Position numbers and translations under genes: made by a program. Shown piece by piece: positions 37,064-55,045 of a DNA stretch of 64,000 nt. This DNA comes from Methylomonas sp. LL1. Lineage in GTDB: Bacteria; Pseudomonadota; Gammaproteobacteria; Methylococcales; Methylomonadaceae. The DNA is taken from the NCBI RefSeq assembly GCF_015711015.1, contig NZ_CP064653.1, positions 1,054,001 to 1,118,000 of the forward strand, written 5' to 3'. The notes under the pieces were generated by a model. It made no database searches. It was not told where the DNA came from and saw only the letters and a list, made by a program, of their open reading frames with translations. Numbering within the stretch: position 1 is the stretch's first letter; each line of letters begins with the position of its first letter.

Positions 37064-37153
37064 GAGTGTCTCCTGATGATTAGTTACATACACAGCGCGG
37101 AAAACTCTGTCCCAACGCTTGACACCAACCATACACGCATGGGTGGACTAGGT

Positions 37154-37208
37154 CGGTACGGCAACGCACATAGATTGAGGGTTAGTGTTTATGTTCGATA
37201 GCGTACCG
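37154..37208. repeat. Palindromic intergenic repeat, copy 2
   Basis: Arms CGGTACGGCAACGCACATAG (37154-37173) and TTATGTTCGATAGCGTACCG (37189-37208) form an imperfect hairpin followed by ACTGCGGCG. It shares arms and flank with 33814-33900. The two copies bracket the small stress genes. Confidence 0.65.
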
Positions 37209-37399
37209 ACTGCGGCGCCCGTGACGGTTAAATTCAGGTTGGGTTTGTGAACCTCATCGCGAACCCGGCTAGTTTACAAATAACTAATTCAGTTCGGTCT
37301 TTAGCTCAGGTTTAATGTAGGTGGGGATTTATCCGCACGGTTGCCGAACGTATTTCATTCGTATTACTTAGCGAACATTAAAAATAATTGGAGAATGCT

Positions 37400-37939: not shown

Positions 37940-38102
37940 ACACGGCGGCAAAGGGATCGGGTTCTAATGCCAATGTATTGACTTAAGAATCTGATCCTTC
38001 ACATGCCTTAGGTGATTTTTGAGAAAGTTTGTACCCATTATATGTGTCGTCCGCTCAGTCAACGGCAAATTGCTTGGATTGGGTACATTTATTGCTGTAA
38101 AT

Positions 38103-38216
38103 CGCCTTAGGTGCTGGCAAGCCGCCGAAGGGCTTGTCGATTAAAGCCTGAGCTTATCCGAGCAAACCGTCAAGGAACACGTCAGCGGTGCTCGGCATCC
38201 TTGCCGAAAAGAACCA
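38103..38216 (+). pseudogene. Remnant of a LuxR/NarL-type HTH
   Basis: Three short pieces in two frames rebuild a LuxR-type DNA-binding domain: GLSIKA, then SLSEQTVKEHVS, then AVLGILAEKNH. They are interrupted by an in-frame stop and two frame changes. The middle piece is the recognition-helix signature of NarL/FixJ response regulators. No receiver domain is visible upstream, so only a decayed C-terminus remains. Confidence 0.55.
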
Positions 38217-39578: not shown

Positions 39579-39665
39579 GGCGGGTTCCTTAGTAAAATTT
39601 TCGGGTTTGGCTAAACAAGGCGGTCATTAGACGGCATCAAAACGAACTATTGTATAACGCCACAC

Positions 39666-40607
39666 CTATATTTCGTTCAGTAACGATAATTCGGCCGGAT
39701 GTGGTGTCATGTAAAAGGATTGATCGATAAAAGCGTCCGGCTGCCTACGGAAATGATGGCGTAATAAGGTCAACGGCACGATCAACGGCACATTGCCCTG
39801 CCGATAAGTCTCAATGGTTTCCACCAACTCTTGTTTGTCATCGCTATCCAGTTTAGTTTTCAGATAACCTTGGATATGCTGCAACACATTTACATGATTT
39901 CCCCGGCTAGCGACGATTTTTAAACAAGCCATCAGATCGACCACATACCGCCGGGCTATGTTCTCAATATTATCCGAACGCACATCGGCAATCAGACGCC
40001 CCAGTTCCTTGGCTAGATTCTGATCGTGACTCATGGCGATCAATTTATGTCGGCTATGAAAGGTCATCAACGCATGCGCGGTTAAAGGCCGCGCGTTTAA
40101 TTGTTGCCAACGGTGCCGCACAAATACCCTCTGGATAAAATTCTCCCGCAGCCCCGGATCACCCAAACGGCCCTCTTCCTCGATCGGTAAGGTTGGGTAA
40201 TGTTGTTGCAAATAGTCGGCAAACACCCCTACTCCGTTGCGGGCCGGTATCTCGTCTTGATAAACTTTTACCCGTTCCATGCCGCAGCTGGGTGAATCCT
40301 TTTTCAATATATAACCGCAGAGTTCTTCTAACCAGAAACGTTGCTGCTCGCCAACTTGTCGCAAAGGCTCGGTGACATCCAGGTCATGATTCTTCACACC
40401 CACTACCCGGATATTCGCGCCGATTCGCCGTAGTTGCACGGCCGGGCGTGGTACGCCTAAACCGGCCTCCAGTTCCGGACAAAAAGCTCGAAATTGAAAA
40501 TATTGCCCCAAGGTACGCTCAATATAACTGTGGTATTTATGCGCGCCATCGTAACGAACCAGATTGCCCAATAAACAGCTGCTGATGCCGACTAAAATAG
40601 TGTCCAT
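39666..40607 (-). CDS. DUF523/DUF1722 (YbgA-like) protein
   Basis: A 313-residue fusion of DUF523 (ISSCLLGNLVRYDGAHK, FCPELEAGLGVPRPAVQLRR, and a DSPSCG element) and DUF1722 (FHSRHKLIAMSHDQNLAKELGRLIA, LTLLRHH). In E. coli ybgA lies next to the photolyase gene phr, and here it closes the operon that contains phr. Biochemical role unknown. ATG at 40607 was preferred to a TTG at 40613. Confidence 0.9.
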   Translation of the reverse strand: MDTILVGISSCLLGNLVRYDGAHKYHSYIERTLGQYFQFRAFCPELEAGLGVPRPAVQLRRIGANIRVVGVKNHDLDVTEPLRQVGEQQRFWLEELCGYILKKDSPSCGMERVKVYQDEIPARNGVGVFADYLQQHYPTLPIEEEGRLGDPGLRENFIQRVFVRHRWQQLNARPLTAHALMTFHSRHKLIAMSHDQNLAKELGRLIADVRSDNIENIARRYVVDLMACLKIVASRGNHVNVLQHIQGYLKTKLDSDDKQELVETIETYRQGNVPLIVPLTLLRHHFRRQPDAFIDQSFYMTPHPAELSLLNEI

Positions 40608-40609
40608 GC

Positions 40610-41128
40610 TCAATGCTCGGGTTGGAGGTAAATTAAATCCTGGGTTGGAAATCCCGCTGCCTTAGCTTGATCAATCAGCTGTTTCAGAATGGCATTCTCC
40701 AATCTGGGAGTGCGTGCCAATATCCACAGATAATCCTTGCTGTTACCGGCAACCATCACATATTGATAATGCTGTTTATCCAACGCGATGATGTTGTAAG
40801 CCCCATAAAACGGCCCGAAAAACGACACTTTCAGGCGCCCGACATCGGGGCTCTCGATAAAATAGGCTCTGCCTTCCGCCGAGCTGTGTTGCTTCCGTTC
40901 GGCATTGTAGCCGCTGTTGATGACTCTGACGCCGCCATCGTCAGTCAAGCTGTATTCGGCTGTCACGTCAACCAATCCGCGCTCGAAACCATGATCCAGA
41001 CGGGCGATTTCATGCCAGGTTCCAAGATACCTATCCAGTTCAAAGCCGGAAACAGGTTTAACGCCTTCCGGAATTCCAGTGCAAGCGCTCAATAACAAGC
41101 ATAACGTTAGGAATAAAAATCGAAGCAT
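40610..41128 (-). CDS. blc: Blc-like lipocalin lipoprotein
   Basis: Outer-membrane lipocalin of 172 residues. The signal ends in the lipobox LLSAC (~residue 16). Lipocalin signature DRYLGTWHEIARLDHGFERGL is followed by the barrel strands and YLWILARTP. Blc binds lysophospholipids or fatty acids during membrane stress. The ATG at 41128 gives a proper lipoprotein signal. It starts 16 bases after phr. Confidence 0.92.
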   Translation of the reverse strand: MLRFLFLTLCLLLSACTGIPEGVKPVSGFELDRYLGTWHEIARLDHGFERGLVDVTAEYSLTDDGGVRVINSGYNAERKQHSSAEGRAYFIESPDVGRLKVSFFGPFYGAYNIIALDKQHYQYVMVAGNSKDYLWILARTPRLENAILKQLIDQAKAAGFPTQDLIYLQPEH

Positions 41129-41144
41129 GGCTGAATGGGCTTGG

Positions 41145-42518
41145 TTAATGTTCACGGCAATTTTGAAATAGGGTTTTGGCCTGCTGGCTGCGCAAACCAT
41201 GATCCACTATCGGCGCTGGATAGTCACGGATCAAGGGACTCTTGAACCCATTATGAATCGCGGCCGCCGGATAAGGTTGAAGCTCGGTAAGCCAGCGCTT
41301 GATATACAGGCAATCGGCGTCAAACTTTTTTTGTTGCAACCAGGGATTGAAAATCCGAAAGTAAGGCTGGGCGTCGCAGCCGGTAGACGCCGCCCATTGC
41401 CAGTTACCGTTGTTTAGGCAAGGATCGTAATCCAACAAATGCTGGGCAAAATAACGTTCGCCCCAACGCCAGCTGATGTGTAGGTCCTTGACTAAAAAAG
41501 AAGCGACTATCATCCGTACCCGGTTATGCATGCAGCCGGTTTGATTAAGCTCGCGCATGCCGGCATCCACAATCGGGAATCCGGTACGGCCTTCCGCCCA
41601 GGCCTGAAATTCTTCCCGGTCATTACGCCAGTTTATAGCGTCGTAGCGCCGATGAAACGCATGGCCAAACACTTGCGGAAAATGAAAACCGATATGGCTA
41701 AAAAAATCCCGCCAATAAAACTGGCGTAATAACGGATGATCACTGCCCAGTTTTTCCACTACCGCGTAATACGCTTCTCTGACCGAACAACAACCGAACT
41801 TTAGATAGCCCGATAAATCGCTGGTCGCCGTCCGTGAGGGAAAATCGCGCAGTTGGCTGTAATCTCGACATTCGCCGATAGCATTCAGTTTATCCAAGGC
41901 TGGCCGGCGGCCACCCGATAAGCGATTATGGTGATGTTGTTTCAGACCCTTGATCAAATCGCCAGCAGCATCGGCTTGATCACGGCCGAATAAATTTGCC
42001 GAAGCCAGAGGTTGCGGCAAAGCCACGGGATTTTGCCGAGCACGCTTGTAAAAGGCGGTAAATACTTGGTAAGCCGAGCCGTCCGCTTTTAACAGCTGTT
42101 CGGGTTCATTCAGCAAGGCATCGCCATAGCGATGAAAACCCAGTTCATTTTGTTCACAAAAGATTTGCAAATCGGCATCGCGTTGCCGGCTGAAGGGCGT
42201 GTAATCTCGATTGACGAATACCGCCTCAATCGCGTGTTGTTGTTTTAACCTAACGATGACTTTCTCGGCTTGCCCCTCCAATACAAGTAACAGCGCGTTC
42301 CGCTGCTTGAATTGCTGTTGCAGATCTTGCAAGGCTTCCAGCATGAATTGCAGGCCCGGCCGGCTTTGATAGGGATGAGGTTCGATCTGCCGGGGATCCA
42401 ATATAAAACAGCACAATACTTGCTCGGATTGAACAAGCGCCGCATTCAAACCGGTATTGTCGAACAGCCGCAAATCACGTCGAAATATAAACAGGGATTT
42501 TGAATAGGGTTTTGCCAT
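41145..42518 (-). CDS. phr: Deoxyribodipyrimidine photolyase
   Basis: FAD-dependent class I DNA photolyase of 457 residues that splits cyclobutane pyrimidine dimers in blue light. The N-terminal antenna domain starts FIFRRDLRLFDN. The FAD domain holds GRTGFPIVDAGMREL, the NRVRMIVASFLVKDLHISWRWGE region in pieces, and DYDPCLNNGNWQW. The ATG at 42518 overlaps the stop of the upstream membrane gene (TAATG); the longer reading to 42743 lies inside that gene. Confidence 0.96.
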   Translation of the reverse strand: MAKPYSKSLFIFRRDLRLFDNTGLNAALVQSEQVLCCFILDPRQIEPHPYQSRPGLQFMLEALQDLQQQFKQRNALLLVLEGQAEKVIVRLKQQHAIEAVFVNRDYTPFSRQRDADLQIFCEQNELGFHRYGDALLNEPEQLLKADGSAYQVFTAFYKRARQNPVALPQPLASANLFGRDQADAAGDLIKGLKQHHHNRLSGGRRPALDKLNAIGECRDYSQLRDFPSRTATSDLSGYLKFGCCSVREAYYAVVEKLGSDHPLLRQFYWRDFFSHIGFHFPQVFGHAFHRRYDAINWRNDREEFQAWAEGRTGFPIVDAGMRELNQTGCMHNRVRMIVASFLVKDLHISWRWGERYFAQHLLDYDPCLNNGNWQWAASTGCDAQPYFRIFNPWLQQKKFDADCLYIKRWLTELQPYPAAAIHNGFKSPLIRDYPAPIVDHGLRSQQAKTLFQNCREH

Positions 42519-43030
42519 TAAACGCAGTCGCCCCAATGGATAATCATCTGCTGGCAATTGAACAGGATATTGGGGTAATACTGGTAAATCACCCAGCGCA
42601 AGGCTAAATCGGCATAAGCCGCAACCGTCAGCCATCGCGCCACGCTGGGCCAAATTCTGCTGGAACAATTTTTGGAACAGCGCCAGATCGCGCCCGTCCA
42701 GTAAATCAAGGGCATCAGCATGATCACATGCATGGTCACCCAACTGGCAACGGTAAACGTGCCCTCCTCCACCCGATAATCGATGTACAACAAAATAGCG
42801 TTATACAAAATAAAAAAAGGCCAGAAAGCGTCTTTTAATTTCAAATAACCTAGCCAACTCCATTGCAAATAAAAATACAGTGTCGCTGGCGTACGTTCCT
42901 CCCATTCCGGCAGTGGTTCCGGCGTGATGGAATACATCAGAAAAGCAAATGCCAAAGCCACTATGAGTGCTTCATACCAGCTAATAAAGGAAGTAAAGGC
43001 AAATAACAATGACAGACTGTCGATTAACAT
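42518..43030 (-). CDS. Hypothetical multi-pass membrane protein
   Basis: A 170-residue protein with about four membrane helices (~8-32, ~68-86, ~93-115, ~140-158) and many aromatic residues. I do not recognise a family. It sits between the TIGR01777 epimerase and phr with spacing of 6 bases and an overlap, so it is certainly part of the operon. Membrane proteins of unknown function are common in LitR-type light regulons (general impression, not verified for this one). Confidence 0.75.
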   Translation of the reverse strand: MLIDSLSLLFAFTSFISWYEALIVALAFAFLMYSITPEPLPEWEERTPATLYFYLQWSWLGYLKLKDAFWPFFILYNAILLYIDYRVEEGTFTVASWVTMHVIMLMPLIYWTGAIWRCSKNCSSRIWPSVARWLTVAAYADLALRWVIYQYYPNILFNCQQMIIHWGDCV

Positions 43031-43036
43031 GGTTGA

Positions 43037-43951
43037 TTATTGAGTTGGCGTCAGGACATTGCGCAAGGCAGTATCCAACTGTGAATATTGGAATTGAAAA
43101 TCCTGTGCCAATAAGCGTTGCGGCATCACCCGTTGGCTCCCCAATACCAAGGCGGCCATTTCGCCCAACACAACTTTCAGCACGGTTTCCGGCATGGGTA
43201 ACAACATCGGCCGGTTTAAAATTCCGGCCAAGGTTGCGCTGAACTCCTGGTTGGTCACCGGCATTGGCGCGGTAGCATTATAAGGCCCACGCATGTCGGG
43301 ATTATCCATCATGGTCAACACGATGCCTATCCAGTCCTGCCAATGTATCCATGACATCCATTGCCGACCATTACCTAAACGCCCGCCCAAGCCAAAACGA
43401 AAAGGCAGCAGCATGCGTTTCAATAAACCACCACCCTGCCCCAATACCAAGCCTGTCCGTATCAAGCAAACTCGGGTGCCGGCAGTCTCCGCTTGTAAAG
43501 CGGCAGTTTCCCAGTCGGCACATAGTTTTTGAGAAAAATCCGGTCGCGGTTGGCTCTGTTCGGTTAACGTCTGATCGCCTTGATCGCCATAAAAACCGAT
43601 TGCCGAACCACTGATCAACACATCGGGAGGGTTGCTGGAATCAGCCATCCAGCTCACCAGTTGCTGAGTCAGTTGAATACGGCTGTCGCGCAATACCTGC
43701 TTGCGAGCCTCGTTCCAGCGCCGGTCGAAAATACCGGCACCGGCCAAATTGATAACAGCTTTAAACGACCCCGCATCGGCTAAATCCGAAACACGGGTAA
43801 CGGCTTGCACCTGATTGCCAAAACACCGCATTATCTTATCCGCGCTACGGCCCAAGATTACCGCCGGTTGATGTTGCTGCAGCAATTTAAAAGTCAAGGC
43901 GCTACCTAAAAAACCGGTGCCTCCCGTAATTAGAATCGATTTATTTGGCAT
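43037..43951 (-). CDS. TIGR01777-family NAD(P)-dependent epimerase
   Basis: Short-chain dehydrogenase-like protein of 304 residues (YfcH family). The Rossmann motif ILITGGTGFLGSAL lies at the N-terminus; SGSAIGFYGDQGD replaces the classical YxxxK region. C-terminal PMPETVLKVVLGEMAALVLGSQRVMPQRL is the DUF1731 tail. The substrate is unknown. ATG at 43951 puts the Rossmann loop at the expected place. Confidence 0.92.
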   Translation of the reverse strand: MPNKSILITGGTGFLGSALTFKLLQQHQPAVILGRSADKIMRCFGNQVQAVTRVSDLADAGSFKAVINLAGAGIFDRRWNEARKQVLRDSRIQLTQQLVSWMADSSNPPDVLISGSAIGFYGDQGDQTLTEQSQPRPDFSQKLCADWETAALQAETAGTRVCLIRTGLVLGQGGGLLKRMLLPFRFGLGGRLGNGRQWMSWIHWQDWIGIVLTMMDNPDMRGPYNATAPMPVTNQEFSATLAGILNRPMLLPMPETVLKVVLGEMAALVLGSQRVMPQRLLAQDFQFQYSQLDTALRNVLTPTQ

Positions 43952-43984
43952 CCGCGTACTCCGAATAAACGCTAACAAACGACG

Positions 43985-44626
43985 TCATTGATTGTCTCCA
44001 AACGAGGTTAGGCGTCCTTTCGGTAACATCAATTTAGAGAGTTGACGATTTTTAAGCCAGACTAAAATCCTGAATCCCAGTAAAAAAGCGATGATGGTCA
44101 GATAAAATAAAGGCTGAAATAAATTGCCCTTCAGTTGCCAAAAATAATGAATCATTGCGGCTCCGGCGGAATAATAAATTAGCCGATGCAATTTTTTCCA
44201 ATTCTTCCCGAGTTTTTTCTTGGCTAATTTGGGCGACGTTATCGCCAATAAGAACAAGATTATATAAGCCATAACGCCAAACCAAATATAAGCGCTTTCC
44301 AGTATGTCGATACCAATAACCCGCCAGAGACCGGCATTATCGACAAACAAATAGCCCAGCACATGCAGGGTGGCGTAAAAAAATGCATATAAACCAAACA
44401 TCTGCCGGTAATCCGTCATGCCGCGCCATTTGGTCATGGTTTGAATCGGGGTTATTGCCAGCGTAATACATAAAAACCGCAACGACCAATCTCCCAGCCG
44501 AATATGAATAGCCTGGATGGGATTTGAACCCAACTGGTTAGTGCTGATATCGAATAACAACCAAAACAGCGGTAGTAAACACCCTATCGAAGTGACTATC
44601 CATGGATTATTGATACGAAACAACAT
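43985..44626 (-). CDS. msrQ: MsrQ heme-binding membrane subunit
   Basis: Inner-membrane b-type heme protein of 213 residues with six predicted helices, partner of MsrP. It passes electrons from the quinone pool or a flavin reductase to MsrP for repair of periplasmic methionine sulfoxide. Conserved histidines lie in FYATLHVLGYLFVD and KLHRLIYYSAGAAMIHYFW. The start overlaps the msrP stop by one base. Confidence 0.93.
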   Translation of the reverse strand: MLFRINNPWIVTSIGCLLPLFWLLFDISTNQLGSNPIQAIHIRLGDWSLRFLCITLAITPIQTMTKWRGMTDYRQMFGLYAFFYATLHVLGYLFVDNAGLWRVIGIDILESAYIWFGVMAYIILFLLAITSPKLAKKKLGKNWKKLHRLIYYSAGAAMIHYFWQLKGNLFQPLFYLTIIAFLLGFRILVWLKNRQLSKLMLPKGRLTSFGDNQ

Positions 44627-45582
44627 TAGAAAAAATGCCGTAAGTCCATGCCGCTATACAGTGAGGCAACTTGCTCACCATAGCCGTTAAATAATTCCGT
44701 TTGCCGGCGGGGCGTAAAAAAACCACTACCGAGCTGACGTTCGCTAAATTGGCTCCAGCGCGGATGAGGAACCGAAGGATTGACGTTGGCGTAAAAGCCA
44801 TATTCGTTTGGCGCAAATTGATTCCAGCTAGTCATCGGCGCTTTTTTTAATAACTCGATTTTGACGATGGCTTTTATGCTCTTGAAGCCATATTTCCAAG
44901 GCACCACCAGCCGCAAGGCGGCCCCATTTTGTTTGGGCAACAGATCACCATACATGCCCACGGCCAAAATGGTTAAGGGATGCACAGCTTCGTCCATGCG
45001 CAGGGCTTCAACGTAAGGCCAGTCGAGCATCGCATTAATCCGCTGCTTGGGCATGGTGTCGGGTTGATAAATAGAGGTGAATTTGACAAATTTGGCTGAC
45101 GATAGGGGCTTAACCGATTTGATCAGATCCGCCAGTCCGAATCCCACCCACGGCACCACCATGGACCAGCCTTCCACACAACGAAAGCGATAAATGTATT
45201 CTTGCAGGGTTTGCCGGCTGAGAATATCTTCCAGATGATAGATGCCGGGTTTTTCTACCTCGCCACTGATTTCCAATTCCCAGCCGTCGGTACGAAGATT
45301 TTGCGCCAACTCGGTTGAATCTTCCTTATTAAAAGAAAATTCGTAATAGTTGGTGTAATTTTTGCTGAGTTTAGCCGGCGTTTCAGGGCCGTAATCGCCG
45401 GATAATGGGCTTCCGACAAGTTCCGGCCAACGCGGTTTAGCGGGGTTGGCCGAAACAGAGGCCAAGCTGGAGGGTAGCAGCATGCCGGCCAGCATGGTCT
45501 TGATAATTTTTCGCCGTTGTTGAAATACCAAGGGATCGGTAATTTCACTGGCGGGGATAGGCTTTTCTGTTTTTATAATCAT
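44626..45582 (-). CDS. msrP: Protein-methionine-sulfoxide reductase catalytic subunit MsrP
   Basis: Periplasmic molybdopterin enzyme of 318 residues exported by Tat (R23-R24 in QQRRKIIKTM, then a hydrophobic stretch ending SVSA). C135 in YRFRCVEGWSM is the molybdenum ligand. LPKQNGAALRLVVPWKYGFKSIK is the family core. It repairs oxidised methionine in envelope proteins, fitting a photo-oxidative stress operon. Confidence 0.95.
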   Translation of the reverse strand: MIIKTEKPIPASEITDPLVFQQRRKIIKTMLAGMLLPSSLASVSANPAKPRWPELVGSPLSGDYGPETPAKLSKNYTNYYEFSFNKEDSTELAQNLRTDGWELEISGEVEKPGIYHLEDILSRQTLQEYIYRFRCVEGWSMVVPWVGFGLADLIKSVKPLSSAKFVKFTSIYQPDTMPKQRINAMLDWPYVEALRMDEAVHPLTILAVGMYGDLLPKQNGAALRLVVPWKYGFKSIKAIVKIELLKKAPMTSWNQFAPNEYGFYANVNPSVPHPRWSQFSERQLGSGFFTPRRQTELFNGYGEQVASLYSGMDLRHFF

Positions 45583-45632
45583 CCCAAATTCACCTGCTGA
45601 TTAGTCCACGCTGAATAAATGCCGGATTGGGC

Positions 45633-46460
45633 TTATTTTTTACCTTTAGGAATAAGGCCCAATAATTGCCTAATTTTACGTTCGGTAATAAACGCCAAGG
45701 AAAATAACTGAATAAAGTTTTCCGCCTCAATCAAATCCAGACCGATATTGGCGGGTACCAGTTCTTTTCGAGTACCAAACAGTCGATCCCAGAAAGCCAA
45801 AACGATGCCATAGTTACTATCATGTTCCATGCGCAGGGTTGAATGATGAGGGCGATGCAAGGATGGTGTGATGATAAATTGCGAAATAATCTCTTCCTTG
45901 GGAACCCTGATATTAGCGTGATGAAAGAAAATGAAAAACAATTCTATGATTTCAATCGACAATACTAAATAGGCATCGACGCCTATCACAACCACGAACA
46001 GACATTTATAGACGATCTCCAATAGCAGATCGAAAACATGAAAGCGAAAACCGGTGGATACATTAAAACTTTTATCACTATGATGGACTTTGTGAAAACG
46101 CCATAGCCACTCAAATTTATGCCCGGCCACATGCCAGACATAGATGGCAAAATCGAAAAAGGCGAAAGCCAGCACCCATTTTACCGGCCCATTATCCAGG
46201 CCACTCAACAGGCCCATATAAGAAAATTGTTGTGCGACTAGAAATAAGGACGAGGCTCTTAAAATGGTCAGTATAACGTTGTTTATCAAGAAAGCGGTCG
46301 TATTGGTGACTAATGACTCCCTATAAACCTTTGGACTAAATACTCGGTAGGGTTTATATTTTTCAACGATCAATAGCAGGATAAAAGCCAGAATGGCTAG
46401 ACCGAATAATGTCTGGTTGAAAGCCATCCCCCCGCTTCCGGCATTGTCTACTGCATTCAT
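45633..46460 (-). CDS. Sterol desaturase / fatty acid hydroxylase family protein
   Basis: Membrane di-iron hydroxylase of 275 residues with about four helices. The histidine clusters are HVAGH (HxxxH), HKVHH (HxxHH) and HRPHH (HxxHH), all on the cytoplasmic side. Substrates of this superfamily include sterols, fatty acids and carotenoids; the one here is unknown. The gene is 32 bases downstream of the LOV gene. Confidence 0.9.
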   Translation of the reverse strand: MNAVDNAGSGGMAFNQTLFGLAILAFILLLIVEKYKPYRVFSPKVYRESLVTNTTAFLINNVILTILRASSLFLVAQQFSYMGLLSGLDNGPVKWVLAFAFFDFAIYVWHVAGHKFEWLWRFHKVHHSDKSFNVSTGFRFHVFDLLLEIVYKCLFVVVIGVDAYLVLSIEIIELFFIFFHHANIRVPKEEIISQFIITPSLHRPHHSTLRMEHDSNYGIVLAFWDRLFGTRKELVPANIGLDLIEAENFIQLFSLAFITERKIRQLLGLIPKGKK

Positions 46461-46492
46461 AACACCTACCTTTTAGGGCTGCAAATTAATTA

Positions 46493-46945
46493 TTATTTTT
46501 CAACTGCATTTAATAGGTCTGTCAATACTTTAATTTCATTATTTGCATTGACTTGCTGGGTTATATCATATTGAACGCCCAGGTAATAAATTACCCGTTG
46601 TTTTTTATCAAATAATGGAATAATTTTTAAATGATTATGGAACAAGGTTCCGTCTTTTTTATAATTTCGCAACGTGACTTCGACCGCTTCATGCTTGTGC
46701 ATGGCTTCGGCGATTTGAAACCGGGCGGGCTGTTCTCTATCTTGCCCCTGCAGAAAGCGGCAATTATGGCCAACGATATCGGCCTGACTATATCCCGTCA
46801 GGCGCTCGAAAGCCTTGTTGGCATAAATAATGGGTGCATCTTCCAAGTCTGGGTCCGCCAAGGTTACTCCATTGACACACTCATCTAAAATAGCGGACAA
46901 CACTTGTGGAATGATTCCGGAATCTTTTTCAACGATAAAAGCCAT
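46493..46945 (-). CDS. Short LOV blue-light photoreceptor
   Basis: A 150-residue protein consisting of little more than one LOV domain with short helical ends. The flavin-adduct motif is GHNCRFLQG, with C62 as the photoactive cysteine and R63 and Q66 for FMN contacts (first Arg of the usual GRNCRFLQ is His here). N94, N104 and Q125 match the FMN-ring ligands. There is no output domain, as in PpSB1-LOV/PplA-type short LOV proteins. The ATG at 46945 follows TTGGAG. Confidence 0.93.
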   Translation of the reverse strand: MAFIVEKDSGIIPQVLSAILDECVNGVTLADPDLEDAPIIYANKAFERLTGYSQADIVGHNCRFLQGQDREQPARFQIAEAMHKHEAVEVTLRNYKKDGTLFHNHLKIIPLFDKKQRVIYYLGVQYDITQQVNANNEIKVLTDLLNAVEK

Positions 46946-46982
46946 GATTAAACTCCAAGCCCTAGCAATGATGTAATTATTT

Positions 46983-47465
46983 TTAATTGCATTCGACGGC
47001 AATTAAATTTTTTATATTTTCAACCGTGTTTTCAGCGCCATCTTCAATTGCATAGCGAATCAGCTTTTCGAACGGTCTCATGAAAACTTCGAGTTCCAAC
47101 AATTCAAACCGAAAAGTCAAACGAGTGGGTTGTTTTTCTTCGCTGCCTTCCAATAAATAACTATGCTTATAAGGTTCATTCAATCCCTGAAAAATAAGTT
47201 TTGAAAGGGGTTGATAATCGGTAATCTCAAAAACAGATTCCATTTCGGATTCATTGTCTTTACGAACCTGTTTCGCTTTCGCGCCGATAAATACCTGCTT
47301 GCCGTCCAATGGCTGAAAATCGATGACTTCCACGGCCCATTTAGGATAATTATCAAAAAAATGCTCACCGATAAAGGAAAAGACCGTGGTTAAGGATTTA
47401 TCAATTTCCACACTCGCCTCTCCGGCAACGGGTTTGGTTGAATCAAATGGAAACTTTATATGCAT
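46983..47465 (-). CDS. SRPBCC family protein
   Basis: A 160-residue soluble START/Bet v 1-fold protein with no signal peptide (VEIDKSLTTVFSFIGEHFFDNYPKWAVEVID opens the domain; LELEVFMRPFEKLIRYAIEDGAENTVENIKNLI in part forms the long C-terminal helix). Such proteins bind hydrophobic ligands; ligand unknown. It is the likely first gene of a ten-gene run ending at 39666, with a 138-base gap upstream. Confidence 0.85.
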   Translation of the reverse strand: MHIKFPFDSTKPVAGEASVEIDKSLTTVFSFIGEHFFDNYPKWAVEVIDFQPLDGKQVFIGAKAKQVRKDNESEMESVFEITDYQPLSKLIFQGLNEPYKHSYLLEGSEEKQPTRLTFRFELLELEVFMRPFEKLIRYAIEDGAENTVENIKNLIAVECN

Positions 47466-47603
47466 GCCAATTCCCCGAGTTTAAGCCAAACGAATTTTCG
47501 GCTTAATGTGGTATCTTGTTCAAATTAGTCGCTAATAGCAAAATTCCTGGTTTTTCATCACAACCAAGCGGTATTTAAAACTGATGAGTCTTTACCGAGT
47601 CCA

Positions 47604-48023
47604 TTAACCGCCATTTTTGGGTAAAATGCAAATTCCACCGTACAAAACATGCGATAAACCGGCGTATAGCAACAATTGCCGATAATTCGGATCAATTTCT
47701 ATCTGATTAACCGTGCAATAAAATTCCAACGATAGAATCAGTATTAATAAAAAAGCTCCTAAAAAAACTACAGCCGCGTAATTGTTGCTCATTTGATAGA
47801 AGCCATAAACAGCCAATTGCACTAGGCACAGATACAGCAATACCAAACGCAAATTATTGGCTAGTGGACCGTATAGGTCACTGCTGTTATCAAAAAAAAG
47901 TTCACTGCCCGCCATCGAAAGCACGCTGGCGATCAGCAAGAACAATACCGAAGCATTAAAATTGACCTGCAGCATGAGCCGCAACAGATTTAACGAAACG
48001 CTGGATACCGAACGGGCATTCAT
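47604..48023 (-). CDS. Hypothetical four-helix membrane protein
   Basis: A 139-residue protein with four predicted membrane helices (~20-38, ~57-77, ~80-98, ~115-132). I do not recognise a family. ATG at 48023 was chosen because AGAGG stands eight bases upstream; TTG at 48029 is too close to it. It lies between the ftsH terminator and the SRPBCC gene, so it may be transcribed on its own or lead the light operon. Confidence 0.7.
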   Translation of the reverse strand: MNARSVSSVSLNLLRLMLQVNFNASVLFLLIASVLSMAGSELFFDNSSDLYGPLANNLRLVLLYLCLVQLAVYGFYQMSNNYAAVVFLGAFLLILILSLEFYCTVNQIEIDPNYRQLLLYAGLSHVLYGGICILPKNGG

Positions 48024-48043
48024 ATTCAATACCTCTGACGATC

Positions 48044-48081
48044 AAAAAAGCACCCTCCCAAAGTACCACGGCGGGAGGGCA
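48044..48081 (-). terminator. Rho-independent terminator after ftsH
   Basis: On the minus strand a CCCTCCC/GGGAGGG stem (48073-48079 with 48053-48059) is followed by six Ts (48044-48049), about 20 bases after the ftsH stop. Confidence 0.8.
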
Positions 48082-48096
48082 CATAGAGGAGGACAT

Positions 48097-49983
<1,887 letters not shown>

Positions 49984-50000
49984 GTACGGATTCCCCTAAC

Positions 50001-50861
50001 TCACTTTTCGCTGGAGAAATATTTGAAAAAATCGGAGTTTGGTTTTAATACCAAGGTATCCTGGGTTTTTTCAAATGACGCTTGATAAGCCTGCAAGCTG
50101 CGATAGAAGGCATAGAATTCCGGATTCTTACCGAAGCTTTTGGCATAAATTTCCGCCGATTCCGCATCGCCGCGGCCGCGAACGTTCTCCGCTTCGCGGC
50201 GGGCGTTGGCGACAATCACTTGTTTTTGCTTATCGGCTTCGGCGCTAATCAACTCCGCGCTTTCCGCGCCTTGTGACCTGAACTCTCGGGCGACCCTTTC
50301 CCGCTCGGCCCGCATGCGCTGATAGACCGAGCTGCTGACTTCCTGCGGCAAATCGATACGTTTGATGCGAATGTCGATCAACTCGATACCGAATTTGTTG
50401 GCCGTCGGCGAAAGCTTTTCCAGCAAGGTATCGCGCAATTCGCTGCGATCTTCCGAGATCAACTGTTTGATGGTACGCACGCCGAATTCGCTACGCATCG
50501 CATCCTTCATGATTTGGTCGAGCCGGAGATTGGCCTGAAATTCATCGCCCCCGACCGTGGTATAAAAAAGACCCACATCACCGATTCGCCACTTGACGAA
50601 CGAGTCAACAATAACGTTCTTCTTTTCGGAGGTAAGAAAACGCTCGGATTTGGCATCCAAGGTCAGCACGCGCGCATCAAACGTACTGACATTATTGATG
50701 ATGGGGGTCTTAAAATGGAGCCCAGGTTTCAAATCCGCTTTGACGATCTCCCCCAGACGAAACAGGATCGCTCTTTCATGTTCGTTGACATGAAAGACCG
50801 ACATCGAGGCCAACGCCACCGCGGCAAAGCCTATTGGAAAAAGAATTTGTGTTCTGGTCAT
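50001..50861 (-). CDS. hflC: FtsH modulator HflC
   Basis: SPFH/prohibitin protein of 286 residues that with HflK forms a membrane cage around FtsH. One N-terminal helix, then a prohibitin domain (VNEHERAILFRLGEIVKADLKPGLHFKTP) and a coiled coil with EFRSQGAESAELISAEADKQ. ATGA overlap with hflK. Confidence 0.95.
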   Translation of the reverse strand: MTRTQILFPIGFAAVALASMSVFHVNEHERAILFRLGEIVKADLKPGLHFKTPIINNVSTFDARVLTLDAKSERFLTSEKKNVIVDSFVKWRIGDVGLFYTTVGGDEFQANLRLDQIMKDAMRSEFGVRTIKQLISEDRSELRDTLLEKLSPTANKFGIELIDIRIKRIDLPQEVSSSVYQRMRAERERVAREFRSQGAESAELISAEADKQKQVIVANARREAENVRGRGDAESAEIYAKSFGKNPEFYAFYRSLQAYQASFEKTQDTLVLKPNSDFFKYFSSEK

Positions 50862-52018
50862 TGTTTGCTCCTGCTGGGACGCAATTCATTCGCTGGTGTT
50901 TTATGCACGCCATTTTTATCAAGGCTATGTTGATCGACATTCAATTCCGGTTCATTGGCTGTCGTGGCCGGTTGCGACTGATGCGCGGGCATTTGTTGCA
51001 TCGGCAGATACATGGCGGGCGGTTGATCGGTATCCACTACGATTTTATTAGTGGATGCGTATAGCTTTTCCTTGGCTTCCAGATATAAACGTTTACGAGT
51101 GATGGCCGGATTTTTTTCATATTCCACCAGCAACTGATCGAAGCGCTCGGTTTCACCCTTGGCTTTGGCGACTTTTTCGGCCGAGTAAGCTTCCGCTTCC
51201 TGCAAAATTCGAGAGGCCGCGCCGCGGGATTTGGGTATGATTTCGTTGCTGTAGGCTTCGGCCTCGTTGATCAAACGCTGTTTATCCTCGCGGGCGCGGA
51301 TCGCATCTTCAAAAGCCCCCTGCACTTCTTCCGGCGGCTGAGCATCCTGCAGATTGACGCTCGCGACAATGATGCCGGCCTTATACTCGTTCATCGCCTC
51401 CTGAATCTGCTGCTTGATTTCGGCCACGATTTGGCTGCGGCCTTCGGTCAAGACGAAATCCATGTTATTGCGTCCGATCACGCCGCGCAGAACACTTTCG
51501 GTCAGTTGTTTCAGCGTGTTTTCATTGTTTTTAACGTTGAATAAATAGTCCCTGGCGCTATTGATTTGATATTGCACCGCTAATCGCACGGCGATGATGT
51601 TTTCGTCGCTGGTCAACATCAACGACTCTTGCGGAACCAATGCCGATTTACTCAGGCGCGCGGCGTCGCTGTAGCCGACCTCTATGAATCGCTGTTGCTC
51701 GACATTAACGACACTGACCGATTCAAATGGAGCCGGAATATGCCAATGCGGACCAGGCAATGTGGTTTCACTGTAGGCACCAAATCGAGTTACCACGCCC
51801 CGATTGCCCTGGTCGATAATATAAATACCACTAATCAGCCAACCCAGTACCAATGAACCGCCCAGCAAACCGGCTAATTTGGATAGAGAAAACAGGTTCT
51901 TGTGGTCATTGTAAAAATCGACCGTTTTGGCGGAAATCACTTTCCATTGTTTATCAAACTCCATTTTCCAATCCGGTGGCGGTGTTTGTTTATCGGCGTT
52001 GTGGTTTTCTGATGACAT
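50858..52018 (-). CDS. hflK: FtsH modulator HflK
   Basis: Partner of HflC, 386 residues. A hydrophilic N-terminal segment precedes one membrane helix (~50-70) and the prohibitin domain (IDQGNRGVVTRFGAYSETTLPGPHWHIP). A coiled coil and a Pro/Gln-rich tail follow. ATG at 52018 has AGAGGAG six bases upstream; the GTG at 52024 is too close to it. First gene of hflK-hflC-ftsH. Confidence 0.95.
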   Translation of the reverse strand: MSSENHNADKQTPPPDWKMEFDKQWKVISAKTVDFYNDHKNLFSLSKLAGLLGGSLVLGWLISGIYIIDQGNRGVVTRFGAYSETTLPGPHWHIPAPFESVSVVNVEQQRFIEVGYSDAARLSKSALVPQESLMLTSDENIIAVRLAVQYQINSARDYLFNVKNNENTLKQLTESVLRGVIGRNNMDFVLTEGRSQIVAEIKQQIQEAMNEYKAGIIVASVNLQDAQPPEEVQGAFEDAIRAREDKQRLINEAEAYSNEIIPKSRGAASRILQEAEAYSAEKVAKAKGETERFDQLLVEYEKNPAITRKRLYLEAKEKLYASTNKIVVDTDQPPAMYLPMQQMPAHQSQPATTANEPELNVDQHSLDKNGVHKTPANELRPSRSKQ

Positions 52019-52128
52019 AATCACTCCTCTTGTTGCATAAGTAGCCAGGCCTGGGCTTTGTTGTTATTTTTTAGTCAAACCGCGAGGGTTCAACCTTATA
52101 AAAAGCGAAAAACACAGATACAGAGTCT

Positions 52129-53385
52129 CTAAGTATCTTTTGGTTCCAAAAACAGCATAAGGTCAAAACCAAATTGCTGTTCCAGTTTTTTTAATGCTTC
52201 GTTTTGTATTTGTCTGACTCGCTCGCGAGTAACTTGTAAATGATCCGCCACCGCTTGCAAAGTCATTTCGGTATGATTCTTTAATCCGAAGCGCATTGCC
52301 AGGATACTGGCCTGTTTTTCCGGCAATGTCGCGACCGCTTTATTGACAAAACGGGCCAGATCGGACTCGATCAAATCATCCAGCGGTTGACTGAATTGCT
52401 GTTGTTGCATTTTCTCCATCATGGACATGCCATCATCGTCGGTATGGGCGTTCGTGTCATAACTAAAAGTAGATTGATAGTAACCGCTGATGGTTTTAAT
52501 CTCTTGCTCGGATAAGTCACAACAGGCTTTTAGTTCCGCCAGACTGGGCCAGCGCTCATGCTGCGTGTAACAATTACGCATCGCCTCGAATATCGGTGAG
52601 GATTTTTCGGCCAAGGCCACCGGCAAAGGCACGACTTTGTCCTGTTTGACGATCAACCTTGAAATAGCCTGCCTGATCCAGAAAATAGCGTAGGTAGAAA
52701 AACAGTTCCCTCGATCAGGCTCAAACCGATCGACCGCCTTGATCAAGCCGACCAAACCCTCCTGCATCAAATCGTCGAAGCTCAACGAACTGGCTCTAAA
52801 TTTGTAGGCCACAAAGGCCACCAAGCCGGTATTGCCGGCTATCATGGCTTGACGTAACTGTTTTAGTTCAAGCCGATAGCTTCTCAACTTGGTTTTATAG
52901 CCGACATCAAGCTCCGCCACCAGGTTCGGATTCTTTTCGATCGACTCACTGACTTCTATCAAATAGACGGGCAGAAAATGCAGCGCCTGCAAACAGAGGC
53001 AAAGTGAAGCGTAAACGGATTCCGATAGGTGACTGAAAGGGTTGTCTAGTTGTAAAAAGACCGATTCTTGTACAACATTGTCCCCGCCGTTCCTTTTGTA
53101 CTGACAAAGCCGATCGGGCCTGTGTTGGCCGGAAAATTCCGCAATAAAGTCTTGCAGTCTGTGTTTATAGTCCGGATTATTCTTGATCAGGATTATCTCG
53201 GAATAATCCTGGCTTTTGCTCAGGCCATCGAATAGCTGTTTTGCGATAAAACCGATTACTTGTTGATTTTCAAGCAATAACGACACTAATAAACCACGCG
53301 CCCGTTCGACACGGAATGCCAGCAACACTTGCTCGGACTCCAAGGCGGGTGTTGTGGCGGTAATTATTTCGGATAGTGCTGGCAT
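52129..53385 (-). CDS. Sigma-70-family factor beside LitR-like regulator
   Basis: RNA polymerase sigma factor of 418 residues. Region 2 is at ~175-250 (FDDLMQEGLVGLIKAVDRFEPDRG, FSTYAIFWIRQAISR), region 3 is short, and region 4 ends in TLQAVADHLQVTRERVRQIQNEAL. It has group-2 type regions rather than an ECF layout. The first ~165 residues do not look like region 1.1 or any domain I know. No RpoH or RpoS signature is evident. The gene is divergent from a CarH/LitR-like regulator and has a good sigma-70 promoter, so it is likely controlled by that regulator (inference). Confidence 0.88.
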   Translation of the reverse strand: MPALSEIITATTPALESEQVLLAFRVERARGLLVSLLLENQQVIGFIAKQLFDGLSKSQDYSEIILIKNNPDYKHRLQDFIAEFSGQHRPDRLCQYKRNGGDNVVQESVFLQLDNPFSHLSESVYASLCLCLQALHFLPVYLIEVSESIEKNPNLVAELDVGYKTKLRSYRLELKQLRQAMIAGNTGLVAFVAYKFRASSLSFDDLMQEGLVGLIKAVDRFEPDRGNCFSTYAIFWIRQAISRLIVKQDKVVPLPVALAEKSSPIFEAMRNCYTQHERWPSLAELKACCDLSEQEIKTISGYYQSTFSYDTNAHTDDDGMSMMEKMQQQQFSQPLDDLIESDLARFVNKAVATLPEKQASILAMRFGLKNHTEMTLQAVADHLQVTRERVRQIQNEALKKLEQQFGFDLMLFLEPKDT

Positions 53386-53420
53386 CAGGATTTACCGATT
53401 TAAATATTTGATTGGCATCG

Positions 53421-53449
53421 AAGATACAATTCTGTAGAATGTTTGTCAA
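53421..53449 (-). promoter_or_regulatory. Sigma-70-type promoter of the sigma factor gene
   Basis: On the minus strand: -35 TTGACA (53444-53449), 17-base spacer, -10 TATCTT (53421-53426). The predicted start of transcription is about 28 bases before the ATG at 53385. The spacer contains a short palindrome, ATTCTGTAGAAT. Confidence 0.75.
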
Positions 53450-53457
53450 ACTATTTT

Positions 53458-53475
53458 TTGTACAAAACATAAACA
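53458..53475 (+). promoter_or_regulatory. Candidate LitR/CarH-type operator
   Basis: TGTACA at 53459-53464 sits nine bases upstream of the -35 box of the sigma gene and just before the regulator's start. GTACA (53460-53464) and AAACA (53471-53475) are spaced by 11 bases, the spacing of CarH operator repeats. Evidence is a single site, so this is tentative. Confidence 0.45.
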
Positions 53476-54381
53476 ATGTATTCAATCAAAGCAATTACCT
53501 CATTAACCGGTTTAACAGCCGAAACGTTAAGAGCTTGGGAACGGCGTTATGATTGCATTACCCCGCAACGCAACGAAAACGGCCGACGCTCCTATTCGCA
53601 ACAGGATCTTGAAAAGCTGAAGCTGTTGGTGAATCTGACCAAAAATGGCCATGCCATCAGTAAAATCGCCGGTTTAAATTGCGACCAGCTACGCCATTTC
53701 CAACATCAATCGCCCGAGCAAGCCGACAACAAACAAACCGCCCTATTCAACCAAATCATCGATGCCTTGCAACACTATCGGATCGAGCGTTGCGAACAAC
53801 TATTAAAGAGGGCCTTGCTGGCTTACGAGCCGTTGGACTATGCCAGAGACATTTTGTTGCCGGCTCTACAAAAAATTGGACTGCTCTGGCACGAGGAGAA
53901 AATCAACATCGCTCAAGAACATATGTTCTCCAACTGTGTTAAGCGTATCGTGTTGACCATGGTGAATAATCTGCATCAACCATCCAAACATAATCCATCG
54001 ATGCTTTTTGCCACGCCCAGCGGCGAGCCGCATGAATTCGGAATTTTGCTGGGTTGTTTGATCGCCGCCACGCAACAATATACTTGCTATTATGTCGGCG
54101 CCGACTTGCCAGGCTTGGATATCATTGATGCCAGCCGACACCTCAGACCAAATTTGGTTGTGATCGGACTGGTGAAGTCACCACCGGATCCGCAGACGGC
54201 GATACAACTCGAACAGTTGATTGAATACGCCAATACCAGTAAAACACCGATCTGGCTGGCCGGACAAGGCGCCGAATACTGGTTTGAACAACAAACCTCA
54301 AACTCGGCCTATTGCGAATACATTAGCGACATCGATCATTTTCAGGCCAAGGCTCAACAACAGCCGTTTTTTAAGCGTTAA
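53476..54381 (+). CDS. litR: MerR/B12-binding (CarH/LitR-like) light regulator
   Basis: A 301-residue transcription regulator. The MerR-type HTH is at ~1-70 (AETLRAWERRYDCITPQR). A helical B12-binding cap (~85-165) and a Rossmann cobalamin-binding domain (~175-295) follow. W138, E148-H149 and H186 (in GEPHEFG) have the same relative spacing as W131, E141-H142 and H177 of Thermus CarH, which hold adenosylcobalamin and allow light-driven release of DNA. So B12-based light sensing is plausible. It is divergent from the sigma factor gene, with 90 bases between them. Confidence 0.92.
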   Translation: MYSIKAITSLTGLTAETLRAWERRYDCITPQRNENGRRSYSQQDLEKLKLLVNLTKNGHAISKIAGLNCDQLRHFQHQSPEQADNKQTALFNQIIDALQHYRIERCEQLLKRALLAYEPLDYARDILLPALQKIGLLWHEEKINIAQEHMFSNCVKRIVLTMVNNLHQPSKHNPSMLFATPSGEPHEFGILLGCLIAATQQYTCYYVGADLPGLDIIDASRHLRPNLVVIGLVKSPPDPQTAIQLEQLIEYANTSKTPIWLAGQGAEYWFEQQTSNSAYCEYISDIDHFQAKAQQQPFFKR

Positions 54382-54456
54382 CCGATTGATCGGCCTTGAC
54401 AATCCGCATCAGCCCATCCAGACTCAGCCGCCATAACAACTATAAAGAGGTGTGCT

Positions 54457-54990
54457 ATGAGACCCAGTCATTGGATTTGTTTCCTGAGTATATTCTGCCT
54501 ATTGAGTTCGGCCGGCCATGCCGCGAGCAACGCCCAATTCGAGCCGGGTGATGTGGTATTGACCAACTGCCACCAGATTTACACCAAAGGTAGCGTTAAA
54601 GCCAAGGTGGACGATGGCTATACCATCCACTTCCCGAAAAACAGCGGACCGATTAATTGTCCCCCTTTCCGCTGGCATGCCGAATTTGTATTGCCCTATC
54701 AATCGGTTCCGGAATATCGGCTACAGTTTATGGGCGGATTTAAAAAAGACCTGATTTTTCGAACCGGAGAAACGGTGACGTTACGCTTTGATGCCGACAA
54801 ACGCATCATTAAAAACAAGGAGACTGTCGATATTCAGGCCGAAATCACCGACATCAGCAGCAACGGCGCCATTGCGGTTAAATTGCTCAGCAACTCACCG
54901 GAGGAAGCCGCCACATTCTGGAAATGGGTAGGCGGCAATTATATCGATTTACGGCACAAAGCACTGGAAGCGGAAAGAAGCAAACGCTAG
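54457..54990 (+). CDS. Secreted hypothetical protein
   Basis: A 177-residue exported protein: signal peptide ending AGHA (~residue 22), then a beta-rich domain with two to three cysteines (TNCHQIY, INCPPFRWHAEF). No known family is recognised. AAGAGG precedes the ATG. It lies 75 bases after the LitR-like gene on the same strand, so it may be co-regulated. Confidence 0.75.
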   Translation: MRPSHWICFLSIFCLLSSAGHAASNAQFEPGDVVLTNCHQIYTKGSVKAKVDDGYTIHFPKNSGPINCPPFRWHAEFVLPYQSVPEYRLQFMGGFKKDLIFRTGETVTLRFDADKRIIKNKETVDIQAEITDISSNGAIAVKLLSNSPEEAATFWKWVGGNYIDLRHKALEAERSKR

Positions 54991-55005
54991 CTAATAGCAA
55001 TAAAC

Positions 55006-55035
55006 CCCGCCGGCCGAGGTAGTCGGGCCGGCGGG
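55006..55035. terminator. Convergent terminator hairpin
   Basis: A perfect 10-bp GC stem (CCCGCCGGCC with GGCCGGCGGG) lies between the convergent genes ending at 54990 and 55046. T-rich stretches flank it on both sides, though neither is long. Confidence 0.8.
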
Positions 55036-55045
55036 ATTCACAATT

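What the first reader, a model, noticed from the sequence alone, without database searches (positions are those of the whole stretch)
39666..54381. Candidate light-response regulon with B12 and flavin photoreceptors
A CarH/LitR-like regulator with all four cobalamin-contact positions conserved is divergent from a sigma factor. Nearby lies a ten-gene minus-strand run containing a short LOV protein, photolyase, YbgA, Blc lipocalin, MsrPQ, a TIGR01777 epimerase and a lipid hydroxylase. LitR-sigma pairs in Streptomyces and Burkholderia control comparable photolyase and lipid genes. The combination in a presumed methanotroph, with a non-ECF sigma factor, looks unusual.
Basis: partly seen in the sequence, partly recalled or inferred. 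Interest (0 to 1): 0.82.

Follow-up and report, generated by a model that had tools for sequence, protein, structure and literature searches.

The report
Light-switched sigma factor and protease module
In methane-eating Methylomonas and relatives, a vitamin-B12 type light-sensor protein sits beside a specialised sigma factor and a membrane protease, and the sensor's likely DNA-binding site is written inside the sigma factor's own coding sequence, which points to a light-controlled protection circuit that has not yet been tested.

Summary
The genes are as described: a CarH/LitR-type regulator (53476-54381) divergent from a non-ECF sigma factor, here SIG (52129-53385), and a ten-gene minus-strand photoprotection run (39666-47465), in a Methylomonas. 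Three additions change the picture. (1) The conserved core is LitR | SIG-HflK-HflC-FtsH: SIG is divergent from LitR in 41 of 42 close LitR loci, LOV is present in only 13 of 27 long ones. (2) A LitR-type operator TGTACA-N12-TGTACA lies inside the SIG coding sequence: perfect in 35 of 42 genes, one mismatch in this window. Its silent third bases are fixed in 40-41 of 41 genes against a typical 0.51-0.54, so selection acts on the DNA. (3) SIG has a sister sigma lineage in the same family that also precedes ftsH (14 of 14 loci fetched). No operator was found before the LOV/photolyase run, so LitR most likely acts through SIG. AdoCbl binding, light response and SIG targets are untested, and part of the B12 motif is degenerate. 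LitR-to-sigma control is known in Streptomyces with an ECF sigma; the sigma class, protease linkage and intragenic operator look new.

The parts
53476..54381 (+). LitR/CarH-type MerR regulator, 301 aa, Wx9EH motif
53459..53482 (.). Operator-type site O1: TGTACA-N12-TGTATT overlapping the litR start codon; same place in 25 of 43 loci
53412..53440 (+). Promoter-like site of litR, TTGGCA-N17-TAGAAT (10 of 12)
   Evidence: conserved block in 34 intergenic regions
53421..53449 (-). Promoter-like site of SIG, TTGACA-N17-TATCTT (10 of 12), overlapping the litR one
52129..53385 (-). SIG, non-ECF sigma factor (regions 2-4), 418 aa, lineage-specific N-terminal extension
53051..53074 (.). Operator-type site O2 inside the SIG coding sequence (here TGTACA/TTTACA, one mismatch; perfect in 35 of 42 genes)
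50858..52018 (-). HflK, FtsH modulator
   Evidence: synteny
50001..50861 (-). HflC, FtsH modulator
48097..49983 (-). FtsH membrane protease, one of three over the family cut-off in the genome
48044..48093 (-). ftsH 3' element: TCCTCCTCTAT followed by a terminator-like hairpin; exact string in 29 of 34 assessable loci
47604..48023 (-). h141, small protein, membrane-like by eye, no family
   Evidence: present in 24 of 27 long loci
46983..47465 (-). SRPBCC/Polyketide_cyc2-like protein, first gene of the run
46493..46945 (-). Short LOV protein, GHNCRFLQ, no effector domain found
45633..46460 (-). Fatty-acid hydroxylase family (best NCBIfam OlsE, below cut-off)
44626..45582 (-). MsrP, methionine-sulfoxide reductase
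43985..44626 (-). MsrQ
43037..43951 (-). TIGR01777 epimerase-like oxidoreductase
42518..43030 (-). h170, membrane-like by eye, no family
41145..42518 (-). DNA photolyase family protein
40610..41128 (-). Blc-type lipocalin
39666..40607 (-). TudS-DUF1722 fusion (candidate RudS, tRNA 4-thiouridine desulfidase)
   Evidence: PMC11417400 passages

Best explanation
A light-switched sigma/protease module. In the dark, LitR carrying adenosylcobalamin binds O1 (overlapping the litR start, just upstream of the SIG -35 box) and O2 (inside SIG) and shuts the two overlapping divergent promoters, perhaps through a DNA loop (O1 and O2 are 308-432 bp apart where both were found) or by blocking elongation. Light breaks the Co-C bond, LitR lets go, and SIG is transcribed with HflK, HflC and FtsH. 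SIG then directs RNA polymerase to protective genes, most likely including the neighbouring run (photolyase, MsrPQ, lipocalin, RudS, lipid hydroxylase, LOV). FtsH-HflKC removes photodamaged membrane proteins and/or degrades SIG to end the response. Shown: genes, motif residues, synteny, operator-type sites, DNA-level constraint on O2, overlapping promoter-like sites. Inferred: AdoCbl binding, light response, repression as the sign of control, loop or roadblock, SIG targets, SIG turnover by FtsH.
For: LitR has Wx9EH (43 of 43 close homologs incl. the window) and a CarH-like model (pLDDT 89; Foldseek top hits TtCarH 5c8e/5c8d, E 1.9e-17; domains superpose at about 3 A, full length only at 7-15 A). 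A CobA/BtuR adenosyltransferase is in the genome. SIG is divergent from LitR in 41 of 42 close loci and absent from 38 distant LitR loci, two of which have under 500 bp upstream. The sites match the footprinted Pseudomonas consensus T(G/A)TACA-N12-TGTA(C/T)A (PMC9758184). O2 is perfect in 35 of 42 SIG genes, 1 mismatch in 5, 2 in 1, 4 in 1. Its four silent third bases are fixed in 41, 41, 40 and 40 of 41 genes, against a median majority of 0.54 at 27 conserved fourfold columns (which include the two Val of the site) and 0.51 over all columns. Of 28 perfect sites in 121 family genomes 17 are inside SIG and 1 upstream of litR in a SIG-less locus; the reversed control gave 2. The two best promoter-like sites in 15.1 kb are the divergent SIG and litR ones. 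FtsH follows the sister sigma in 14 of 14 fetched loci.
Against: The second half of the B12 motif is off: Gly for Ser in SxV/T and no GG in this LitR; SxV/T at the canonical spacing in 4 of 43 close homologs against 29 of 38 distant ones. In this genome one O2 half-site has decayed, and 8 of 26 genomes with a close LitR have no perfect site. O1 was found in only 25 of 43 loci. No conserved LitR box and no listed sigma-70-type promoter lies directly before the LOV/photolyase run; LOV is absent from 14 of 27 long loci. Known CarH operators overlap promoters (PMC8156234); one inside a gene is atypical. O1-O2 distances show no helical phasing by eye. No expression data exist here.
Confidence: 0.58

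Rival explanations
1. SIG-HflKC-FtsH is a general membrane or protein-quality stress system. LitR only sets its level, and the LOV/photolyase run is a separate unit, driven by the housekeeping sigma or a LOV-linked path, that lies next door in Methylomonas. (The rivals are not mutually exclusive, so odds do not sum to one.)
For: The sister sigma precedes ftsH in 14 of 14 fetched loci (13 as the next called gene, 1 with hflKC between), with a LitR match within the fetched stretch in 1 of 14. LOV is present in 13 of 27 long LitR loci, TIGR01777 in 18 of 27. No shared promoter motif before the run, 16 sequences compared by eye.
Against: The order SIG-HflKC-FtsH-h141-run on one strand is kept in many Methylomonas loci and partly elsewhere. 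TIGR01777, photolyase, Blc or RudS follow in several loci that lack LOV (L078, L088; L119, L127, L141).
Confidence: 0.28
2. LitR of this clade no longer senses light through AdoCbl; it responds to the short LOV protein, as the class II LitR PmlR2 does, or to another signal.
For: Gly for Ser and loss of GG in the B12 motif. The Pfam B12-binding (Rossmann) model is not hit at E 0.001. A short LOV is encoded 6.5 kb away, and PmlR2 is controlled by direct contact with illuminated short LOV (PMC9758184).
Against: Wx9EH in 43 of 43; W138, E148 and H186 invariant in 36 aligned rows; the model includes the Rossmann part, whereas class II LitRs are described as keeping only the four-helix bundle (PMC9758184). 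LOV is absent from 14 of 27 long loci.
Confidence: 0.2
3. O2 is real but serves an internal promoter (a short SIG or the downstream hflKC-ftsH genes) rather than a loop or roadblock.
For: Pseudomonas class II LitR sites lie at the promoter (PMC9758184).
Against: No conserved promoter-like sequence was seen around O2 by eye (sequences), and one search lists no minus-strand site between SIG's start and 52460. N-terminal residues upstream of O2 are conserved at protein level (R30, L33 invariant).
Confidence: 0.12
4. The VQxxxxVQ repeat in SIG is conserved for a protein reason (for example a binding or cleavage motif), and its likeness to the LitR operator is coincidence.
For: Both Gln (Q106, Q112) are invariant in the 30-row alignment.
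Against: Silent third bases are fixed, including the T of codon 104, whose amino acid varies (V14, I13, P11, A2, L1). None of 14 sister sigma genes has a site with up to one mismatch. A SIG-less locus keeps a perfect non-coding copy 263 bp upstream of litR (L142). The motif lies in a stretch of pLDDT < 50 (88-115), weak evidence since other parts of this model are also low.
Confidence: 0.04

Closest known systems
LitR-LitS of Streptomyces (PMC12705666, passages; LitS is called an ECF sigma in the title of its reference 25)
   Same: B12-type LitR controls a neighbouring sigma gene, which drives photoprotective (carotenoid) genes
   Different: There LitR is described as promoting litS transcription; here repression is inferred. 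SIG has regions 2-4 and is not ECF; FtsH-HflKC follow it; an operator-type site lies inside the sigma gene; no carotenoid genes in the run
CarH of Thermus thermophilus / Bacillus megaterium (PMC8156234, one section and passages)
   Same: Domain order, Wx9EH, lower-ligand His, fold
   Different: B12 motif degenerate at SxV/T and GG; sites are TGTACA-N12-TGTACA rather than tandem 11-bp repeats; one site intragenic
Pseudomonas class II LitR (PplR/PmlR) with short LOV (PMC9758184, parts 1-2 of 8)
   Same: Operator consensus; photolyase operon; short LOV encoded nearby; photolyase-LitR-RudS association (PMC11417400, passages)
   Different: Class II keeps only one of two B12 domains; no paired sigma is mentioned in the parts read; here Wx9EH and the full fold are kept
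Vibrio cholerae MerR (VCA0056)-phr with ChrR-SigmaE (PMC5241685, passages)
   Same: MerR-type regulator with photolyase, plus a sigma-driven photo-oxidative response
   Different: ChrR anti-sigma system there; no ChrR over cut-off in this genome
FtsH degradation of sigma-32 in E. coli (recalled)
   Same: FtsH next to an alternative sigma suggests turnover
   Different: No degradation tested; SIG is below the RpoH cut-off

Membership tests
CarH / class I LitR | Wx9EH cap of the adenosyl group | tested here: met
   W138-x9-E148 H149; 43 of 43 close homologs
CarH / class I LitR | ExHx2G with lower axial His | tested here: met
   E184xH186xxG189 in the window; 37 of 43 by the strict pattern; one of the others reads GDPHEFG (L077, same sequence type as L107)
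CarH / class I LitR | x41 SxV/T then x22-27 GG | tested here: not met
   GLV at that place and no GG in the window; SxV/T 4 of 43, GG 25 of 43. So filed as CarH-like, not as a proven CarH
CarH / class I LitR | MerR DNA-binding domain + four-helix bundle + Rossmann fold | tested here: met
   (the Rossmann part by model only)
CarH / class I LitR | AdoCbl-dependent dark DNA binding, released by light | not testable with these tools
   needs protein
LitR operator (Pseudomonas consensus) | T(G/A)TACA-N12-TGTA(C/T)A at the target (sequence only) | tested here: met
   Exact match in 37 of 42 close loci, 0 of 38 distant loci; the window has sites with one mismatch only: 3 of the genome's 11, control 6
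Sigma-70, non-ECF | Regions 2, 3 and 4 present | tested here: met
   RpoD_Cterm model aligned 2-226/238 over residues 178-403
RpoD / RpoS / RpoH | Score over curated cut-off | tested here: not met
   185 vs 378.7 (RpoS), 176.7 vs 555 (RpoD PRK05658), 111.1 vs 323.1 (RpoH); apart from 20 RpoD-like rows in the tree (RpoS and RpoH not included)
LitR-LitS type cascade | LitR controls the sigma gene directly | tested here: inconclusive
   Operator-type sites at and in SIG; binding not tested
LitR-LitS type cascade | Sigma drives photoprotective genes | tested here: inconclusive
   Adjacent run, no SIG promoter motif defined
Short LOV photoreceptor | LOV core with photoactive Cys, no effector domain | tested here: met
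   NCRFLQ in the window and in 15 of 15 relatives, 150-164 aa
RudS | TudS fused to DUF1722 | tested here: met
   PF04463 at 8-147 and PF08349 at 190-306; activity not tested

The most novel reading that the evidence does not exclude
Methanotrophs of this family own a separate light-gated sigma/protease switch: a sigma lineage that evolved beside a dedicated FtsH(-HflKC) protease was captured by a B12 photoreceptor, whose main operator was written into the sigma gene's coding sequence, so that the photoreceptor controls essentially one genomic target and everything else follows through SIG and its turnover; a conserved RNA element after ftsH adds a further control layer.
Probability: 0.45. Interest if true: 0.75.

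Novelty: new variant of a known kind. Interest (0 to 1): 0.62.

Why it matters
I found no paper on light sensing in these methanotrophs in the listings (open-licence library, capped lists). The module gives a defined, testable circuit in named cultured strains that carry it (Methylomonas koyamae, Methylobacter tundripaludum, Methylotuvimicrobium buryatense). It would show a B12 photoreceptor working through a non-ECF sigma and an intragenic operator kept by codon-level selection, and would tie a dedicated FtsH to light stress. The operator and synteny also give a simple rule for finding the module in new genomes.

Tried and rejected
Third 1-mismatch box at 42784-42807 in the 170-aa gene: no match there in the 42 relatives scanned, so taken as chance. 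A common promoter motif upstream of the LOV run: 16 sequences compared by eye, nothing stable. Rfam match to the ftsH 3' element: none; the only hit up to E 2 in 36000-56000 was a 15-base tmRNA fragment elsewhere, far below its gathering score. The hairpin is also not in the terminator list, whose loop limit is 8. Helical phasing of O1-O2: 308-432 bp, no pattern by eye (the value 0 printed for L120 is an artefact of an over-long SIG frame, one search gives 320). ChrR system: one weak sub-threshold hit. HTH_17 as a probe: no match. Complement of the ftsH 3' element to leaders: 7 nt or more in 25 of 35 hflK, 5 of 37 ftsH, 2 of 31 h141, 1 of 16 FAH and 0 of the other sets; suggestive only, since the motif resembles an anti-Shine-Dalgarno sequence. 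Paper searches: ten; only the top 8-25 titles and abstract starts were seen of up to 4,852 papers, and none shown describes a LitR-sigma-FtsH module or an intragenic CarH operator.

Rows dropped and choices: one search used 41 of 42 SIG genes (L126, truncated, left out). One search's intergenic consensus used 34 regions of 60-150 bases. One search misses O1 where a called start is wrong; one search repeats the count on corrected starts (25 of 43). The 27 'long' loci are those of 42 with litR beyond position 9400; photolyase (2) and Blc (3) counts there are low because flanks end at 10 kb. L132's SIG does not match (4 mismatches) and stays in the counts. The 14 sister-sigma loci were picked by me from the list, not at random. 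The 19 rows are loci with the exact TCCTCCTCTAT, so its invariance there is by choice; L113, L120, L140, L141 and L142 lack the exact string.

Full report
What is there. The window is part of a 4.92-Mb genome; its closest LitR relatives in named genomes are Methylomonas. On the minus strand ten genes run from 47465 to 39666: an SRPBCC protein, a short LOV protein, a fatty-acid hydroxylase, MsrP, MsrQ, a TIGR01777 protein, a 170-aa protein of no family, a photolyase, a Blc lipocalin and a TudS-DUF1722 fusion. [quoted passage not shown] Upstream on the same strand lie h141, ftsH, hflC, hflK and a sigma gene (SIG); LitR is divergent from SIG across 90 bp.

The regulator. LitR aligns with Thermus CarH over residues 2-243, and its model (pLDDT 89) finds CarH first in the PDB (E 1.9e-17; the B12 domain superposes at about 3 A, full length only at 7-15 A). 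The adenosyl-capping motif Wx9EH is in 43 of 43 close homologs; W138, E148 and the ligand H186 are invariant in 36 aligned rows. The His beside the Trp, which becomes the light-state ligand in CarH (PMC8156234, section 10 and passages), is present. But the canonical motif continues with SxV/T and GG; here the Ser is Gly and GG is absent. I therefore call it CarH-like and leave AdoCbl binding as likely but unproven. The genome has a CobA/BtuR adenosyltransferase and four B12-binding_2 matches, LitR being one and a 1240-aa frame (MetH size) the best.

The conserved core. Of the 80 named loci kept (from 232 confirmed), SIG is divergent from LitR in 41 of the 42 close ones (L101-L142) and found in 0 of 38 distant ones (L143-L180), of which two have under 500 bp upstream. 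Among the 27 of those 42 with long flanks: FtsH 27, SIG 26, h141 24, HflC 24, HflK 23, TIGR01777 18, FA hydroxylase 14, LOV 13, SRPBCC 13, MsrP 13, MsrQ 12, Blc 3, photolyase 2, the last two cut by flank length. So the unit is LitR | SIG-HflKC-FtsH, with the photoprotection run attached in Methylomonas and some others. The genome has three FtsH and three HflK genes over cut-off, so this is not the sole protease set.

The sigma. SIG has regions 2 to 4 and scores below the curated cut-offs for RpoD, RpoS and RpoH. In a tree of 53 sequences SIG, a sister branch in the same family and RpoD-like sigmas each form one group (100/99, 100/98, 100/100). The tree has no RpoS or RpoH, and the program warned that the long branches of RpoD and SIG meet. 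In 14 of 14 fetched loci of the sister branch the sigma is followed by ftsH, in 13 as the next called gene and in one with hflKC between. In 274 genomes sampled across the class, matches outside the family start at E 2.3e-67 and are mostly of RpoD size in the capped list. The sigma-FtsH pairing thus appears older than the LitR link.

The operators. Footprinted Pseudomonas LitR sites read T(G/A)TACA-N12-TGTA(C/T)A (PMC9758184, parts 1-2 of 8). In this genome 11 sites match with one mismatch or fewer, 3 of them in this locus; the reversed control gave 6. TGTACA-N12-TGTATT overlaps the litR start (O1); the same arrangement is found in 25 of 43 loci, in Methylomonas, Methylobacter and unnamed relatives. 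The best site is inside SIG (O2): perfect in 35 of 42 genes, one mismatch in 5 including this window, two in 1, four in 1. It encodes VQxxxxVQ. The silent positions settle which level is selected: the third base of codon 104 is T in 41 of 41 complete genes although its amino acid varies; the third base of codon 105 is A in 41 of 41; the matching bases of the second half-site are fixed in 40 of 41 each. Elsewhere the typical majority is 0.51-0.54 and the next best conserved fourfold column reaches 0.78. In 121 family genomes there are 28 perfect sites in 27 genomes: 17 inside SIG, 1 upstream of litR in a SIG-less genome, 10 elsewhere; the reversed control gave 2 (placement by comparing coordinates). 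Eight of the 26 genomes with a close LitR, this one included, have no perfect site. Exact sites of the broader consensus occur in 37 of 42 close loci and 0 of 38 distant loci; none of 14 sister sigma genes has a site within one mismatch, though one sister locus has a perfect site 304 bp upstream of its sigma (L236).

Promoters. The two best sigma-70-like sites in 15.1 kb are the overlapping divergent pair for SIG (TTGACA-N17-TATCTT) and litR (TTGGCA-N17-TAGAAT), 10 of 12 each; the total of such sites is no higher than in shuffles (19 vs 23.2), so only position and conservation count. No conserved box and no listed promoter lies directly before the LOV run.

Mechanism. The parsimonious reading is a cascade: dark LitR represses itself and SIG; light releases SIG-HflKC-FtsH; SIG drives protective genes; FtsH limits damage or SIG. 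Precedents exist for parts of it (LitR-LitS in Streptomyces, PMC12705666 passages, where LitR is described as promoting litS; FtsH and sigma-32, recalled), but no step has been tested here. The main weaknesses are the partial B12 motif, the decayed O2 half-site in this genome, the patchy O1, and the lack of direct evidence that SIG controls the ten-gene run.

A further element. After ftsH, TCCTCCTCTAT precedes a terminator-like hairpin; the exact string is there in 29 of 34 assessable loci. In 19 loci chosen for having it, 5 of 9 predicted hairpin pairs show changes on both sides. The 12-base pattern occurs 16 times in 13 of 21 genomes, this one included, against 5 for the reversed control; only some of these places were checked to be after ftsH. 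It could be a 3'-derived small RNA with an anti-Shine-Dalgarno seed; hflK leaders carry a complement of 7 nt or more in 25 of 35 loci. This is a lead only.

Verdict. Novelty lies in the sigma class, the protease linkage and the intragenic operator.

Noticed in passing
window 48044-48093 (-): TCCTCCTCTAT followed by a covarying terminator-like hairpin after ftsH, exact string in 29 of 34 assessable loci; no Rfam match.
   Followed up: partly
L228-L240, at the ftsH stop codon: Twelve of the 14 sister sigma-ftsH loci carry a different conserved 3' string, TGAGGTGCGCTCATT or nearly so, starting at the ftsH stop codon, before a terminator-like hairpin (by eye).
   Followed up: no
L142 9738 (and G098): A locus with LitR and FtsH-HflKC but no SIG keeps a perfect non-coding TGTACA-N12-TGTACA 263 bp upstream of litR.
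   Followed up: partly
L168, L144, L157: MAG records titled Klebsiella pneumoniae, Janthinobacterium lividum and Candidatus Planktophila lacus rank among the distant LitR loci with uncultured gammaproteobacteria; the record names may be wrong.
   Followed up: no
window 55046-58384 (-): Very large receiver/phosphatase-like/PAS/GGDEF-EAL protein beside litR; domain names by eye, not tested. ORFs similar to it lie next to many distant LitR genes.
   Followed up: no
window 36471-37939: Small proteins that look like CsbD and PRC-barrel stress proteins by eye (recalled, not tested) next to the region.
   Followed up: no
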